Shown one piece after another: positions 2,349-12,124 of a DNA stretch of 12,763 nt. This stretch comes from an archaeon. GTDB taxonomy: Archaea; Hydrothermarchaeota; Hydrothermarchaeia; JALTZZ01; JALUTC01. Position 1 is the stretch's first letter, and each line of letters starts with the position of its first letter. The notes under the pieces were generated by a model, which was not told the DNA's origin, did not search any database, and saw only the letters and a program-made list of their open reading frames with translations. The stretch lies in assembly GCA_027051265.1 (NCBI GenBank), contig JALTZH010000157.1, positions 1 to 12,763 on the forward strand. The letters run 5' to 3'. Made by a program: the position numbers and the translations under genes.

Positions 2349-2374
2349 TTAGGGTTTCATTTTTATAAACCTAA
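2349..2374 (+). promoter_or_regulatory. feoB promoter with a TATA box bracketed by a DtxR-box-like inverted repeat
   Basis: The TATA box TTTATAAA (2362-2369) is centred about 26 bp before ATG 2391, predicting a leaderless mRNA starting at or next to the start codon. An imperfect inverted repeat encloses it: TTAGGGTTT (2349-2357) against AAACCTAA (2367-2374), perfect apart from one extra G in the left arm. The TTAGG and CCTAA half-sites equal the outer halves of the bacterial DtxR/IdeR box, but here 16 bp separate them instead of 9. A repressor bound here would block TBP. The natural candidate is the DtxR-like regulator encoded two genes into the same run. The palindrome is seen directly; the regulation is inferred. 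Confidence 0.5.
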
Positions 2375-2390
2375 AATACTCTTGCTTATT

Positions 2391-4340
2391 ATGCATCATG
2401 AACATCATAAATGTATAATTGAAACAGGAAAAATAAATATCGTATTGGTAGGTAATCCAAACGTAGGTAAATCTGCGATATTTAATCAAGTTTCTGTTAA
2501 AAAAGCAACCGTATCAAATTATCCTGGAACAACTGTTGAAATATTTTCTTCTAGAATAAAAACGTTTGAGAATAGTGTTATAATAGATACGCCTGGAGTA
2601 TATAATCTATTTAAGGTTGGTAGTGAAGATGAAAAAGTAACTAGAGAATTCTTACTCAAGTATGATGTGGATAGAATAGTTTTAGTTATTGATTCGAAAA
2701 ATTTAGAAAGAGGTATTTATTTGTTGCTACAATTACTTGAACTAGAAGTGCCGATCGTTGTATCGTTAAACATGTTTGATGAAGCTTCAAGAAGAGGTAT
2801 AGATATCGATGAAAAAAAATTGGAAGAAATTTTTGGGATAAAATTCATTAAAACCATTGCAACGGAAGGCTATGGGTTGAAAAGTTTGATTGATACGATA
2901 ATGAAGATCAAGGATACGAGTAAAAGGTTCATGATAAAATATCCAGAAGAATTTGAAACCAAAATTAAAGAAGTAGAAGAATTGTTGGTTGGATTTAAAC
3001 ATAGAAGATTTTTGGCAATATGTTGCTTGTTGGATTTTGAGAATATTAAGAATATTTTGGAAGAAAAATTAGACAGTAACAAAATTAAAAAGATAGAGGA
3101 ATTATCAAAGGGTAAAGATTACGATATAATCGTTTATAATACTTTAAGGAAAAACGTTAACAGAATATTAAAACAAGTTGTGAAGAAAAGAAAGATTGAA
3201 CATAAAAGTTTATCTGAGAAAATAGACAGCTATTTGTTACATCCTGTATATATTATACCAACAATATTTTTAACATTACTTTTTCTTTACTATTTTGTTG
3301 GAGTTTTTGGAGCAGGAATTTTGGTTGATTTTTTAGAAGAAGATATTTTTGGAGAAAAAATAAACCCATATGTTACAGAGCTCTTTAAAAAATATATAGG
3401 AAATAACATCATAACAGATTTATTTGTTGGAGAATATGGAATAATAACTTTTGCACTAACATATGCGTTTTCGATAATTCTTCCCGTCGTTACAACGTTC
3501 TTCATAGCTTTCAGCATATTAGAAGATTCCGGATATTTGCCACGTTTGGTTAGTTATCTTCATATTCTTTTCAAAAAGATAGGGTTAAGTGGAAAAGCAA
3601 TAATTCCAACAGCGTTAGGATTCGGATGCGTTACAATGGCAACGATAACTACAAGAACTCTTAGTACAAAAAAAGAAAGAAAAATTCTAACATTCTTACT
3701 AGCATTAACAATACCTTGCTCAGCTCAACAAGCTGTTATACTTGCTTTAATTATCGGTTTAGGTTTTAAAGTACTGGTTGGTTGGATGTTAACGATAATC
3801 CTCGTATATTCATTTTTCGGATATGTTCTTAGTAAACTTATAAGAACAGAAGAGCGTTCTTATTTCATTTACGACTTACCACCACTGAGATTGCCTCTTA
3901 TTTCGAACGTTTTACTTAAAACATACCTAAGACTTAAATGGTATATAACTGAGGTTGTACCTCTCTATATTCTTGCTTCGATTATTTTGGTATTGTTTGA
4001 TAAAGTAGGAGTGTTAAACGTTTTATATGAGATTTTATCACCAATAGTTGTTGGATGGCTGAATTTACCAAAAGAAGCAGCTTTAGCTTTTATTCTTGGT
4101 TTCTTACGAAGAGATTACGGAGCGGCAGGATTTTTTGCATTGAATGAGAAAGGATTATTAACTGAGGAACAATTGATTGTAAGTGTTGTAACGATAACGT
4201 TATTCGTACCTTGTATTGCAAACTTCTTAATGATAATTAAAGAAAGAGGAAAACTATTCGGTATTGTTGCTTTTCTATCAATAATAACGATAGCATTTAT
4301 AATAGGTGGAATTGTGAATTTGATTTTAAAGGTGATTTAA
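2391..4340 (+). CDS. feoB: Ferrous iron transporter FeoB
   Basis: A membrane Fe2+ importer with an N-terminal GTPase domain. Residues 21-28 are the G1 P-loop GNPNVGKS, followed by YPGTT (G2), DTPG at 66-69 (G3) and NMFD at 127-130 (G4). A helical spacer of about 110 residues leads into a membrane domain from about residue 283, with the FeoB signature LEDSGYLPR near 377-385, a gate segment GFGCVTMATITTRTL from 410, and RRDYGAAG plus FVPCIANF towards the C-terminus. The length (649) is normal. The gate lacks the GFGCNVP form of enterobacterial FeoB and carries the GFGCVTMA variant. ATG 2391 is chosen over TTG 2382 because the TATA box places initiation there. The N-terminus then reads MHHEHHKC, a possible metal-binding tail. 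It heads a tight iron gene run; the next start lies 1 bp after its stop. Confidence 0.95.
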   Translation: MHHEHHKCIIETGKINIVLVGNPNVGKSAIFNQVSVKKATVSNYPGTTVEIFSSRIKTFENSVIIDTPGVYNLFKVGSEDEKVTREFLLKYDVDRIVLVIDSKNLERGIYLLLQLLELEVPIVVSLNMFDEASRRGIDIDEKKLEEIFGIKFIKTIATEGYGLKSLIDTIMKIKDTSKRFMIKYPEEFETKIKEVEELLVGFKHRRFLAICCLLDFENIKNILEEKLDSNKIKKIEELSKGKDYDIIVYNTLRKNVNRILKQVVKKRKIEHKSLSEKIDSYLLHPVYIIPTIFLTLLFLYYFVGVFGAGILVDFLEEDIFGEKINPYVTELFKKYIGNNIITDLFVGEYGIITFALTYAFSIILPVVTTFFIAFSILEDSGYLPRLVSYLHILFKKIGLSGKAIIPTALGFGCVTMATITTRTLSTKKERKILTFLLALTIPCSAQQAVILALIIGLGFKVLVGWMLTIILVYSFFGYVLSKLIRTEERSYFIYDLPPLRLPLISNVLLKTYLRLKWYITEVVPLYILASIILVLFDKVGVLNVLYEILSPIVVGWLNLPKEAALAFILGFLRRDYGAAGFFALNEKGLLTEEQLIVSVVTITLFVPCIANFLMIIKERGKLFGIVAFLSIITIAFIIGGIVNLILKVI

Positions 4341-4341
4341 T

Positions 4342-4974
4342 ATGGAAGTGATTGAAGAAGCTTTAGAATACGTTTGGATTTTGGAAGAAGATAATAAAAA
4401 CGAGATTGATGAATTTCTAAAGAATTTTGACAAAAAGCTACTTAACGATTTGATAAAAAACGAATATATAGTAGTAAAAGATAATAAACTAGAATTGACT
4501 GAAAAAGGAAGAGAAATAGCTAAGAATATTGTAAGAAGACATAGATTGGCAGAATTTTTACTCTATAACGTATTTGAAATAGAAGAGGAATCTTATGAAG
4601 AATTTGCATGTAAATTTGAACATATCGTTGATGAGGAAATAACAGATAAAATATGTACGTTTTTAGGACATCCTTTATACTGCCCACATGGTAGAAAAAT
4701 TCCTAGAGGGAAATGCTGTATAGAGAAAAAGAAAGAGATAGAATCGATAATAAAACCTTTAATAGAATTAAAACCAGGAGAAAAAGCTGAGATTGTTTAT
4801 TTTGTAACAGAGAGTAAACGTTTAACGGATTCGTTGATAAGTCATGGTCTCTCACCTAAAAAGAAAATAATACTTAAACAAATATATCCTACGGTTATAA
4901 TTCAAATCGACGAATCGATTATAAGTTTTGATAGAGAAATAGCGAAAAGAATTTATGTTAAAGAATTAGATTAA
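4342..4974 (+). CDS. DtxR-like metal-dependent regulator fused to a FeoA domain
   Basis: A 210-residue two-part protein. Residues 1-65 form a short winged-helix-like segment ending in LELTEKGREIA. Residues 66-128 are the DtxR metal-binding and dimerisation region: His67 and Glu71 in RHRLAE, then Cys90, Glu93 and His94 in EFACKFEH, and His116 in CPHGRKIP, which correspond to DtxR ligands. Residues about 140-208 are a FeoA-like SH3 domain (PGEKAEIVYF onward). Cys105, Cys114, Cys125 and Cys126 cluster nearby and could add a metal site. The helix-turn-helix is several residues shorter than in DtxR, so DNA recognition may differ. A Shine-Dalgarno, AAGGTGAT, lies inside the end of feoB just before ATG 4342. 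No separate feoA is present, so this protein probably both modulates FeoB and senses iron. The domain call is firm; the repressor role is inferred. Confidence 0.85.
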   Translation: MEVIEEALEYVWILEEDNKNEIDEFLKNFDKKLLNDLIKNEYIVVKDNKLELTEKGREIAKNIVRRHRLAEFLLYNVFEIEEESYEEFACKFEHIVDEEITDKICTFLGHPLYCPHGRKIPRGKCCIEKKKEIESIIKPLIELKPGEKAEIVYFVTESKRLTDSLISHGLSPKKKIILKQIYPTVIIQIDESIISFDREIAKRIYVKELD

Positions 4975-4980
4975 TTAATT

Positions 4981-5268
4981 ATGATTTCGAAGATACCTTT
5001 CGATATAAAATTATTAAAGAAGGAAAATATTGATAAGGAAATTTTAAGAATTGGAATAATAGCCGAGCTGGATGCAATAAACCTATATGAACAATTGGCT
5101 GACATGACCTCAGACGAAAGATTGAAGAAGATTCTTCTAGATATTGCAAAAGAAGAAAAAACACATGTTGGAGAATTTCTAGCTCTATTGCTTGAATTGG
5201 ATCGTGAACAGAAAGACGAGTTAGAGAAAGGAAAAGAGGAGGTTGAAGAAAAGCTTAAAAAAGCATGA
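4981..5268 (+). CDS. Stand-alone encapsulin-cargo-type ferritin-like protein
   Basis: A 95-residue, all-helical, highly charged protein with two main helices, as in encapsulated ferritins, which assemble as rings of dimers and oxidise Fe2+. The pattern IIAELDAINLYEQ gives Glu29, Tyr36 and Glu37; AKEEKTHVGEF gives Glu58, Glu59 and His62. Glu29, Tyr36, Glu59 and His62 align by eye with Glu32, Tyr39, Glu62 and His65 of the Rhodospirillum rubrum EncFtn ferroxidase centre. The sequence also strongly resembles the ferritin-like N-terminal domain of the Pyrococcus furiosus encapsulin as I remember it, but here the protein stops after a charged coiled tail (EEVEEKLKKA). No shell domain or obvious cargo-loading peptide follows. 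It lies 6 bp after the DtxR-FeoA gene and has no clear Shine-Dalgarno, so coupled translation is likely. A small rubrerythrin-like protein is the alternative. Confidence 0.8.
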   Translation: MISKIPFDIKLLKKENIDKEILRIGIIAELDAINLYEQLADMTSDERLKKILLDIAKEEKTHVGEFLALLLELDREQKDELEKGKEEVEEKLKKA

Positions 5269-6200
5269 GAATAAGAACACCATCACGAATTCATATAACG
5301 TTAATTGATTTAAACGGCTCGTTAGGTAGAGTTGATGGTGGAGTAGGTATAGCTCTTGAAAAACCATACTTCGAATTAGAATTTGTAGAGAACGATAAAA
5401 TAGAAGTCGAGGGTTGTTATTCAGAAGAAATAAAAATAATTGCGGAAAAGGTTATAAACGAATTGAAGCTTGATGTTAAAGCAAGAATAAGGGTTTTAAA
5501 TCATTACGAAAGGCATATCGGTCTTGGATCTACAACACAACTATATTTAGCAATAGCAAAAGGAATTACGTTGTTGAACAACATAAATTTAAACGTTTAT
5601 GAACTTGCAAAAATTGTAAATAGAGGTGGAACTTCAGGTATAGGAATTAATGCATTTGAGCATGGTGGTTTCATAATAGATGCTGGTCATGGAATAAGAG
5701 ATAAACCGGACTTTTTACCATCGGATTTTTCAAGATCAAAACCTGCAAAAATGTTGTTTAGATATGATTTTCCATGGGATCTAATCTTAGTTATACCGAA
5801 AGATAAGAAGAGAATATATGGAGGAAAGGAGTTGATGATATTTAAGGAATATTGTCCAATAAGTGAAGATGAGGTTGAAAGGTTATGTAGAGTTATACTG
5901 ATGAAACTAATTCCTGCAGTTGTTGAAGAAGATATTGAAGAATTCGGATCAGCTATAAACTTAATTCAAAGACTCGGCTTTAAACGAATAGAAATATCAT
6001 TACAGAACGATTCCGTTAAAGAATTACTTAAAATCTGTCAACTCTATTCCTATGGTGCTGGATTAAGTTCATTTGGTCCTGTTATTTATTGTATTGCCGA
6101 AAAAAGAATTCTTCTTGAAAGATTAAGAGAAGAGAAAGATAGAATCGAAAAAATAATTTTAACGAAACCAAATAATTCAGGATATAAGGTATTGTATTAG
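5265..6200 (+). CDS. Beta-ribofuranosylaminobenzene 5'-phosphate synthase (beta-RFAP synthase)
   Basis: This enzyme joins an aryl acid (p-hydroxybenzoate or p-aminobenzoate) to PRPP with release of CO2 and pyrophosphate, the committed step in the arylribitol part of methanopterin. The 311-residue product begins with the family start MRIRTPSRIHITLIDLNG, followed by a glycine-rich GRVDGGVGIAL. The GHMP-kinase-like motif HIGLGSTTQLYLAIAKG lies at 84-100, NRGGTSGIGINAFEHGGF at about 119-136, and a late YSYGAGLSSFGP motif near the C-terminus. The length is slightly short but complete. Its ATG overlaps the stop of the ferritin-like gene (ATGA, 5265-5268), indicating coupled translation with the iron run. 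Its place there has no obvious metabolic reason. Its stop is 10 bp from the stop of the convergent gene. Confidence 0.9.
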   Translation: MRIRTPSRIHITLIDLNGSLGRVDGGVGIALEKPYFELEFVENDKIEVEGCYSEEIKIIAEKVINELKLDVKARIRVLNHYERHIGLGSTTQLYLAIAKGITLLNNINLNVYELAKIVNRGGTSGIGINAFEHGGFIIDAGHGIRDKPDFLPSDFSRSKPAKMLFRYDFPWDLILVIPKDKKRIYGGKELMIFKEYCPISEDEVERLCRVILMKLIPAVVEEDIEEFGSAINLIQRLGFKRIEISLQNDSVKELLKICQLYSYGAGLSSFGPVIYCIAEKRILLERLREEKDRIEKIILTKPNNSGYKVLY

Positions 6201-10417: not shown

Positions 10418-12124
10418 TCAAAGGGCACATGCTTTTTGGTAACGTTTCTCTTTCAAGAAATTTTCAACTACTTTAACGACATCTTCAATTTTAACTCGAA
10501 TTTGTTCCTTAGTATCTCTAAATCGTATTGTTACGGAGTTATCCTTAAGCGTATCAAAATCTACGGTAATTGCAAAAGGTATTCCAAGTTCATCCGCTTT
10601 GTAATATCTTTTTCCTATCGTATCTTTTTCATCGTATATCGCGTATAAACCATTGTTTTTAAACTCTTCATAAATTTTTAGTGCAATAGCGTTCAATTCA
10701 TCCTTGTTTACGAGAGGAAAAACCGCAACAGTTATTGGAGCAATTTCAGGTTTGAGTGTTAATACCATACGACCATCTATCTCTTTTAAATTATTATCTA
10801 GTAGGCAATACAATATTCTATCTATACCAAATGATGGTTCAACAACATGAGGAATAAGTTTTTCTCCAACTATTCTTTGTTCAACGCGTTTTAGTTTAAC
10901 GTATCTTTCATCAAGAATTATTGTATCGTTTTCTAATTCAATTATTACTTTCCCTTTCTTTTTAAACTCTTCAACGTATTTTTCATTCTTTAAAATTTCT
11001 AGAATTTGTTTTGCTTTCTTTTTAAACGTTTTTCCAATTAACGTAAGATTTGGTTCTAATATTTCTTTTTTAATAATAATAGGTCTTTCATATGTAACAA
11101 ACGCTTTCAATTCTTTTTTGCTATGAATCTCATGCATCCTTAAGTCATAATCTCCTCTATAAGCAATACCTGCAACTTCTATCCATCCATATCTTTTTGT
11201 TTTAATTTCACAATCCCACGCATCTCTAGCATAATGTGCTAGTTCTTCTTTTGAATGTTGTCTGAATCTTATATTGTTTTCATCAATTCCTATTTGTTTA
11301 AGAAATATTTTTGTTAAAACAATACAATACGCAAAAGCTTCATTGATAAATATTCCTCTATCAACAGCCTCTCTAGCGGTAATCTTATATTCTTGGTTAT
11401 TATTTGTAATTAAATATAAGTTTTCATTTTCATAATATTTAAAACGACTATATTTTCTTTCCTTAGGATTAATAAACAGTTCAAGCTCTGCTTGAGTAAA
11501 TTCTCTCAATCTTATTAAACCTTGTCTTGGTGAAATTTCATTTCGATAAGATTTACCTATCTGTACAATACCAAATGGAAGTTTTCTTCTAGCAAAATCA
11601 TATAATCTATTAAAGAGGATAAAAATATTTTGTGCAGTTTCTGGTCTTAAATATCCAGTTCTTGAATTAAGTGGTCCAATATATGTTTTAAACATGAGAT
11701 TAAACATTATTATCTTTGATAATTTTCCACCACATTTTTTGCAACAAATCTTTTCCAGAAGTTTTTCCATCTCATCTAACGAAAGATTTTTCGTATCTAT
11801 TTTTAATTCTTCTTCTATCAAATGATCTGCTCTATATGCTTGTTTACAATTGTTACAATAAACTAGAGGATCTATAAAATTTTCAACATGACCGCTCGCT
11901 ATAAACACCTCTTCTGGTGCAATTGTTGGTGAAGATATCTCAAAGAATCCTTCTTTTATACAAAAGATTTCACGCCATTTATTTTCTATCTTATTTTTAA
12001 GGATACATCCAAGTGGACCATAATCGAAAAACCCTGATACACCACCGTATATTTCATATGCTGGATATACAAACCCATGTTTGATTGCAAATTCCAAAAC
12101 CTTATCTCTATCATCCTTTTCCAT
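10418..12124 (-). CDS. glyS: Glycyl-tRNA synthetase (class II, archaeal/eukaryal alpha2 type)
   Basis: Charges tRNA-Gly with glycine in the cytosol. The 568-residue product is full length for the single-chain homodimer type, not the bacterial alpha2beta2 enzyme. It opens with KHGFVYPAYEIYGGVSGFFDYGPLG, the family hallmark. Two CxxC pairs, Cys90/93 and Cys128/131, flank an insert and probably bind zinc. Class II motif 2 is at about 192-213 (SYRNEISPRQGLIRLREFTQAE) and motif 3 at 429-436 (EPSFGIDR). The C-terminal anticodon-binding domain runs from about 460, with APITVAVFPL and DEKDTIGKRYYKADELGIPF. The gene stands alone on the minus strand: it converges on the DUF996 gene and diverges from the TSUP transporter. 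Confidence 0.97.
   Translation of the reverse strand: MEKDDRDKVLEFAIKHGFVYPAYEIYGGVSGFFDYGPLGCILKNKIENKWREIFCIKEGFFEISSPTIAPEEVFIASGHVENFIDPLVYCNNCKQAYRADHLIEEELKIDTKNLSLDEMEKLLEKICCKKCGGKLSKIIMFNLMFKTYIGPLNSRTGYLRPETAQNIFILFNRLYDFARRKLPFGIVQIGKSYRNEISPRQGLIRLREFTQAELELFINPKERKYSRFKYYENENLYLITNNNQEYKITAREAVDRGIFINEAFAYCIVLTKIFLKQIGIDENNIRFRQHSKEELAHYARDAWDCEIKTKRYGWIEVAGIAYRGDYDLRMHEIHSKKELKAFVTYERPIIIKKEILEPNLTLIGKTFKKKAKQILEILKNEKYVEEFKKKGKVIIELENDTIILDERYVKLKRVEQRIVGEKLIPHVVEPSFGIDRILYCLLDNNLKEIDGRMVLTLKPEIAPITVAVFPLVNKDELNAIALKIYEEFKNNGLYAIYDEKDTIGKRYYKADELGIPFAITVDFDTLKDNSVTIRFRDTKEQIRVKIEDVVKVVENFLKEKRYQKACAL

What the first reader, a model, noticed from the sequence alone, without database searches (positions are those of the whole stretch)
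4981..5268. Encapsulin-cargo-type ferritin without a shell, inside an iron uptake operon
The 95-residue protein keeps the EncFtn-like ferroxidase pattern (Glu29, Tyr36, Glu59, His62) and resembles the ferritin domain fused to the Pyrococcus furiosus encapsulin. Here it is free-standing, has no evident loading peptide, and is joined to FeoB and a DtxR-FeoA fusion. EncFtn proteins need a shell to store mineral iron. The gene therefore either serves a shell encoded elsewhere or acts as a shell-free ferroxidase or iron buffer coupled to import.
Basis: partly seen in the sequence, partly recalled or inferred. Interest (0 to 1): 0.6.

Follow-up and report, generated by a model that had tools for sequence, protein, structure and literature searches.

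The report
Shell-free encapsulin-type ferritin in iron-import operon
An archaeal iron-import operon encodes a small ferritin-like protein of the kind normally housed inside a protein nanocage, yet neither this genome nor the genomes of its close relatives encode the cage, so a large, conserved group of these proteins appears to work without the shell thought necessary for storing iron.

Summary
Window 4981-5268 (+) encodes a 95-residue EncFtn-type protein (Pfam EncFtn-like 36.7 bits, cut-off 27) with Glu29, Tyr36, Glu59 and His62 in place. The AlphaFold2 model matches P. furiosus EncFtn best, and the 50 Foldseek matches listed are all EncFtn-type proteins. It has no loading peptide. The genome (1.46 Mb, 95% complete) has no PF04454 shell and no cage ferritin.

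Beyond this genome, 80 relatives at 64-77% identity, archaeal and bacterial, share its length (91-100 aa), its N-terminal S-x-x-P motif and the absence of a tail. Of their 79 genomes one matches the shell family, and that is a prophage capsid. In 294 genomes of one archaeal phylum, 73 carry the class; their six shell matches are unlinked phage-type capsids. By contrast, 15 genomes carry an EncFtn-type relative with a strong shell match (12 read: all have a loading peptide), and 7 carry fused EncFtn-shell genes.

The operon feoB-DtxR-EncFtn-RFAP synthase is conserved in a second species of the genus, with the same TTAGG-N16-CCTAA repeat around the feoB TATA-like sequence. Feo linkage is genus-specific; elsewhere some copies sit beside oxidative-stress genes. 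Most likely role: a shell-free ferroxidase that buffers incoming iron. Function is untested.

The parts
4981..5268 (+). Shell-free EncFtn-type ferritin-like protein, 95 aa (ferroxidase residues E29, Y36, E59, H62; motif D54xxxE58E59xT61H62)
   Evidence: Pfam PF22277 36.7 bits; PDB 5n5e E 7e-25; AF2 pLDDT 93.4; Foldseek best hits 5n5e then Rru/Ne/Mx/Hoch EncFtn; 80-row alignment
2382..4340 (+). feoB, ferrous iron transporter (TTG at 2382; ATG at 2391 is the more likely start)
   Evidence: TIGR00437 399 bits, cut-off 315.65; FeoB_N, Gate, FeoB_C
4342..4974 (+). DtxR/IdeR-type metalloregulator with a C-terminal SH3/FeoA-like domain
   Evidence: PF02742 93 bits, PF04023 41.5 bits; NCBIfam DtxR aligns residues 44-207
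5265..6200 (+). beta-ribofuranosylaminobenzene 5'-phosphate synthase (methanopterin biosynthesis), last gene of the operon, overlaps the EncFtn gene by 4 bp
   Evidence: NF040726 384.7 bits, cut-off 328
2349..2374 (.). Candidate operator TTAGG-N16-CCTAA flanking a TATA-like TTTTTATAAA upstream of feoB
   Evidence: Same half-sites, spacing and position in the genus mate; only occurrence in this genome

Best explanation
The gene encodes a free-standing EncFtn of a widespread class that works without an encapsulin shell. By homology it should form the EncFtn annular decamer with a di-iron ferroxidase centre at each of five subunit interfaces. In this genus it is probably co-transcribed with FeoB and a DtxR-type iron regulator, so it is made when ferrous iron is being imported. 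It most likely binds and oxidises incoming Fe2+ in small, protein-bound amounts, keeping the labile ferrous pool low and away from peroxide, and hands the iron on rather than storing it as a mineral. Shown: identity, conserved active site, predicted fold, no family 1 shell gene found, no loading peptide, gene order and promoter repeat conserved in two species. Inferred: co-transcription, decamer, ferroxidase activity, regulation by the operon's own DtxR, and the buffering role.
For: EncFtn identity by profile, PDB sequence and fold. All active-site residues conserved. No PF04454 in the own genome or in 78 of 79 genomes carrying close relatives; the one match lies in a phage-type head cassette. 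In 294 genomes of one phylum, 0 of 73 carriers of this class have a real shell (six phage-type capsids excluded after reading their context) against 22 of 81 carriers of other homologues (Fisher p 1.6e-7, curated; raw 6 vs 25, p 5e-4). No tail in any of 80 relatives, whereas all 12 shell-adjacent homologues read end in T(I/V)GSL(K/R)-type peptides. The own genome has no cage ferritin: its only PF00210 match is a rubrerythrin next to a superoxide reductase. Operon order conserved in the genus mate. Promoter repeat with IdeR-type pentamers conserved at the same place (PMC8464063).
Against: EncFtn of R. rubrum without its shell is a slow ferroxidase, binds only about 10-48 iron ions per decamer and aggregates with excess iron (PMC5012862), so a shell-free role must be low capacity or use a partner. 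Feo linkage is confined to one genus. Ferritins are usually made when iron is plentiful, whereas Feo is usually made when it is scarce (general knowledge), so co-expression fits a storage role poorly. The oligomer cannot be tested here. The genome is 95% complete in 257 contigs, so a missed shell is not impossible.
Confidence: 0.6

Rival explanations
1. It is mainly an oxidative-stress protein: a shell-free di-iron peroxidase or Dps-like scavenger that consumes peroxide with Fe2+, working with superoxide reductase, rubrerythrin and peroxiredoxins. The Feo linkage is a local rearrangement.
For: Peroxiredoxin, desulfoferrodoxin, SOD, catalase or rubrerythrin genes are among the two nearest genes on either side in 9 of 80 related loci (14 of 299 near genes vs 5 of 456 far genes, p 0.003; Pfam tallies). 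The window's own genome pairs a rubrerythrin with a superoxide reductase elsewhere.
Against: Most loci show no such neighbour. The BLAST queries for the enrichment were partly taken from near loci, which biases the count, and some loci are related to one another. Here the operon is about iron import.
Confidence: 0.25
2. It is cargo of an undetected or non-HK97 shell.
For: A shell is known to be required for mineral storage in R. rubrum (PMC5012862). A 2024 review notes that the short tail-less class could in theory be encapsulated (PMC11202242).
Against: No PF04454 in own or related genomes. No shell gene among neighbours. The proteins end where the fused class begins its linker. The family 2 model PF19307 was also negative in the own genome, but that search had no positive control.
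Confidence: 0.07
3. It is a rubrerythrin-like or other helical protein misread as EncFtn.
For: Pfam Rubrerythrin also matches at 33.1 bits (cut-off 22.8).
Against: The EncFtn model scores higher. The best eight PDB sequence matches are EncFtn-type, as are the 50 Foldseek matches listed. It is a half-bundle (helices 14-42, 46-73, 75-93) without a rubredoxin domain.
Confidence: 0.03

Closest known systems
P. furiosus EncFtn domain of the Flp-fusion encapsulin (PFC_05175, PDB 5n5e / 2e0z)
   Same: Closest solved relative: 54-57% identity in the structural alignments; same ligands and the archaeal D-xxx-EE-x-(A/T)-H motif; many proteins of both classes start MLS
   Different: There it is fused to an HK97-fold shell; here it stands alone, ends where the linker would begin, and has S-x-x-P instead of the fused class's MLSINPTLI-like start
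Short FLP class (s-FLP), Nitrosomonas europaea NE0167 (PDB 3k6c; PMC11202242)
   Same: Free-standing, 95 aa, no known targeting peptide; first classed as non-encapsulated
   Different: Only 28-29% identity in structural alignment; described as predominantly bacterial; no shell census or operon context was found in the papers searched
EncFtn with targeting peptide (R. rubrum Rru_A0973, H. ochraceum, M. xanthus EncB/EncC)
   Same: Same fold and ferroxidase residues
   Different: About 25-38% identity; those carry a C-terminal loading peptide and go with a shell. Entry-site residues E31/E34 of R. rubrum are A28/D31 here
DtxR/IdeR-regulated iron genes
   Same: FeoB with a DtxR-type regulator and TTAGG/CCTAA half-sites (PMC8464063)
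   Different: Half-sites are 16 bp apart around a TATA-like sequence, not the 19-bp bacterial box; the EncFtn and a methanopterin gene are part of the operon

Membership tests
EncFtn-like (PF22277) | Profile match above the curated cut-off | tested here: met
   36.7 bits vs 27
EncFtn-like (PF22277) | Ferroxidase residues Glu, Tyr, Glu, His | tested here: met
   E29, Y36, E59 invariant, H62 in at least 90% of 80 rows
EncFtn-like (PF22277) | Two-long-helix half-bundle fold | tested here: met
   AF2 pLDDT 93.4; Foldseek 5n5e, 5da5, 3k6c
EncFtn-like (PF22277) | Annular decamer and ferroxidase activity | not testable with these tools
   Needs purified protein; inferred from identity to 5n5e
Encapsulin cargo ferritin (family 1 systems) | Encapsulin shell gene in the genome | tested here: not met
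   No PF04454 in G000; no real shell in 79 relatives' genomes
Encapsulin cargo ferritin (family 1 systems) | Loading peptide or fusion to shell | tested here: not met
   0 of 80 have a tail; positive controls show T(I/V)GSL(K/R)-type peptides or fusion
Encapsulin cargo ferritin (NCBIfam EncB_fam NF058679) | Score above the family cut-off | tested here: not met
   75 vs 90 bits
s-FLP class | Free-standing, about 95 aa, no targeting peptide | tested here: met
s-FLP class | Sequence kinship to NE0167 | tested here: inconclusive
   phmmer E 9e-4, 28-29% identity; nearer to the fused archaeal type
Rubrerythrin | Four-helix bundle in one chain plus rubredoxin domain | tested here: not met
   95-aa half-bundle, no rubredoxin domain; a true rubrerythrin is elsewhere in the genome
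Cage ferritin / Dps | PF00210 match and about 150-190 aa four-helix chain | tested here: not met
   PF00210 finds only the rubrerythrin in this genome

The most novel reading that the evidence does not exclude
Shell-free EncFtn is an old, independent iron-handling system found across archaea and bacteria, and the shells of the fused and loading-peptide types were joined to EncFtn (or lost from it) more than once. In this genus it may act as an iron-receiving partner of FeoB.
Probability: 0.25. Interest if true: 0.75.

Novelty: new variant of a known kind. Interest (0 to 1): 0.55.

Why it matters
The accepted model says EncFtn only oxidises iron and needs the shell to store it. A highly conserved class (70% mean column identity) kept in dozens of genomes without a shell means the protein has a selected function alone. 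That is directly testable, and it questions the label 'encapsulin cargo' for such proteins. It also bears on whether the ferroxidase or the nanocompartment came first.

Tried and rejected
Shell elsewhere in the genome: searched and not found. The one PF04454 match among 79 relatives' genomes (L085) and those in G157, G196, G240, G245, G295 and G313 were read in context and rejected as phage-type capsids: PHROG major head protein for the three of them that matched, with HK97-gp10-like, portal or shared head-cassette neighbours. The G196 case is the weakest, resting on the head-protein match and a similar-looking cassette. Note that a true encapsulin shell (L116) also matches that PHROG model, so the context, not the PHROG match, decides. 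A general Feo linkage: rejected, only the genus mate shares it; Methanohalophilus has a DtxR-family gene two genes downstream but no FeoB match in the flanks. PF19307 (family 2) was negative but its control rang nowhere, so it says nothing firm. The protein tree (94 columns) puts the window with its genus mate but resolves little else; no claim of gain or loss rests on it. Papers on a shell-less EncFtn coupled to Feo: none found in the library. Taxonomic name of the host: not resolved.

Full report
WHAT IS THERE. The window carries a tight co-directional series: feoB (2382-4340; the ATG at 2391 is the likelier start), a DtxR-type regulator (4342-4974), the 95-residue protein of the finding (4981-5268), and beta-RFAP synthase of methanopterin biosynthesis (5265-6200, overlapping by 4 bp). 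The 'DtxR-FeoA fusion' is best read as a normal three-domain DtxR/IdeR: the FeoA model matches its C-terminal SH3-like domain, and NCBIfam's DtxR model aligns across it. No other FeoA domain was found in this genome or in its genus mate.

WHAT THE PROTEIN IS. Pfam EncFtn-like scores 36.7 bits (cut-off 27), above Rubrerythrin (33.1). The best PDB sequences are the P. furiosus EncFtn domain (5n5e, E 7e-25) and its fused shell protein (2e0z), followed by M. xanthus and R. rubrum EncFtn. An AlphaFold2 model on 80 sequences has pLDDT 93.4 with helices 14-42, 46-73 and 75-93; Foldseek ranks 5n5e first and lists only EncFtn-type proteins in its top 50. The motif D54-xxx-E58-E59-x-T61-H62 fits the archaeal form D-xxx-EE-x-A(T)-H described in PMC11202242. 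So the family assignment is firm; decamer and activity are inferred.

NO SHELL. PF04454 finds nothing in the window's genome, which holds one EncFtn. A scan of GTDB contigs gave 343 relatives; the best 80 (64-77% identity) come from many archaeal groups and several bacterial ones. All are 91-100 aa, with P6 invariant, S3 nearly so, and no C-terminal tail. Their 79 genomes gave 0 of 50 and 1 of 29 PF04454 matches; the single match is a major head protein inside a head gene cluster.

CONTROLLED COMPARISON. In 294 genomes of the phylum of L012 (Methanohalophilus), 154 have a homologue and 34 have PF04454 over cut-off. I sorted them by the form of the EncFtn. (a) The window's class, full-length and free-standing: 73 genomes, six PF04454 matches, all unlinked and, on reading the flanks, phage-type capsids. 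(b) Fused genes: frames of 339-353 aa in six genomes plus one apparently broken by a frameshift (G283). (c) A distant class with a strong shell match in the same genome: 15 genomes; the 12 EncFtn proteins I read beside the shell all end in T(I/V)GSL(K/R)-type loading peptides. (d) A distant free-standing class (MPEF-like start) without a loading peptide and, in the examples read, without an intact shell. Real shells: 0 of 73 in class (a) against 22 of 81 other carriers, p 1.6e-7; uncurated 6 against 25, p 5e-4. Species are related, so these p-values are only indicative. The positives in the same search show that archaeal shells, fused ones included, are detected well above cut-off. In G263 a tail-less EncFtn sits beside a truncated, frameshifted shell remnant, which looks like shell loss in progress.

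THE OPERON. The order feoB-DtxR-EncFtn-RFAP synthase recurs only in the other species of the genus (L002, L083 = G072). In the window's small phylum sample (23 genomes) only these two and one distant 45% homologue (L084) carry a match, so the gene is patchy there. Upstream of feoB both species have TTAGG-N16-CCTAA around a TATA-like TTTTTATA, 30-31 bp before an ATG (from the sequence). The pattern occurs once in the window's genome and twice in the genus mate, against 3 and 1 for the reversed control, so it is not enriched genome-wide; its shared position is what counts, and I noticed it before testing it. The pentamers equal those bound by IdeR monomers (TTAGGTTAGSCTAACCTAA, PMC8464063), but the spacing differs. 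That the operon's own DtxR binds it is inference, and its DNA-binding domain is divergent (no PF01325 match).

OTHER CONTEXTS. Elsewhere the neighbours vary. Peroxiredoxin, desulfoferrodoxin, SOD, catalase or rubrerythrin genes lie within two genes in 9 of 80 loci: 14 of 299 near genes against 5 of 456 far ones, p 0.003 (tallies). The queries were partly drawn from near loci, so this is suggestive only.

FUNCTION. The own genome has no cage ferritin; its only PF00210 match is a rubrerythrin followed by a superoxide reductase. R. rubrum EncFtn without shell oxidises Fe2+ slowly, holds 10-48 irons per decamer and precipitates with excess iron (PMC5012862). A bulk store is therefore unlikely. Co-expression with an importer fits a low-capacity buffer and ferroxidase that keeps incoming Fe2+ bound and away from peroxide. 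A peroxide-scavenging role is the main rival.

NOVELTY. Tail-less 'short' EncFtn proteins were known from bacteria and once called non-encapsulated (PMC11202242). What appears new here, within the papers I could search, is the shell census for a large and very conserved class across archaea and bacteria, its contrast with fused and loading-peptide classes, and the Feo-DtxR operon. Hence: new variant of a known kind.

Noticed in passing
window 10418-12124 (-), GlyRS residues 351-424: The NCBIfam model for family 4B (A-domain) encapsulin shell, NF041191, matches part of this glycyl-tRNA synthetase (E 9.6e-6, 25.9 bits, far below its cut-off of 90); possible kinship of the A-domain model to a GlyRS insertion.
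   Followed up: no
L135:1919-2288 (G263): Truncated, frameshifted encapsulin shell remnant beside an EncFtn that lacks a loading peptide: apparent shell loss.
   Followed up: partly
L094:1800-2069, and similar second copies in other genomes: A second EncFtn-like paralogue, in L094 in tandem with the first, alike only over about residues 1-77, with a different C-terminus.
   Followed up: no
window 2391-2414: FeoB begins MHHEHHKC, a histidine-rich N-terminus; the genus mate (L002) begins MIHLHKG instead.
   Followed up: no
window 5265-6200: A methanopterin biosynthesis gene (beta-RFAP synthase) overlaps the EncFtn gene in an iron operon in both species; the reason is unknown.
   Followed up: no
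L115:3248-4090 (G283): An EncFtn-shell fusion apparently split by a frameshift.
   Followed up: no
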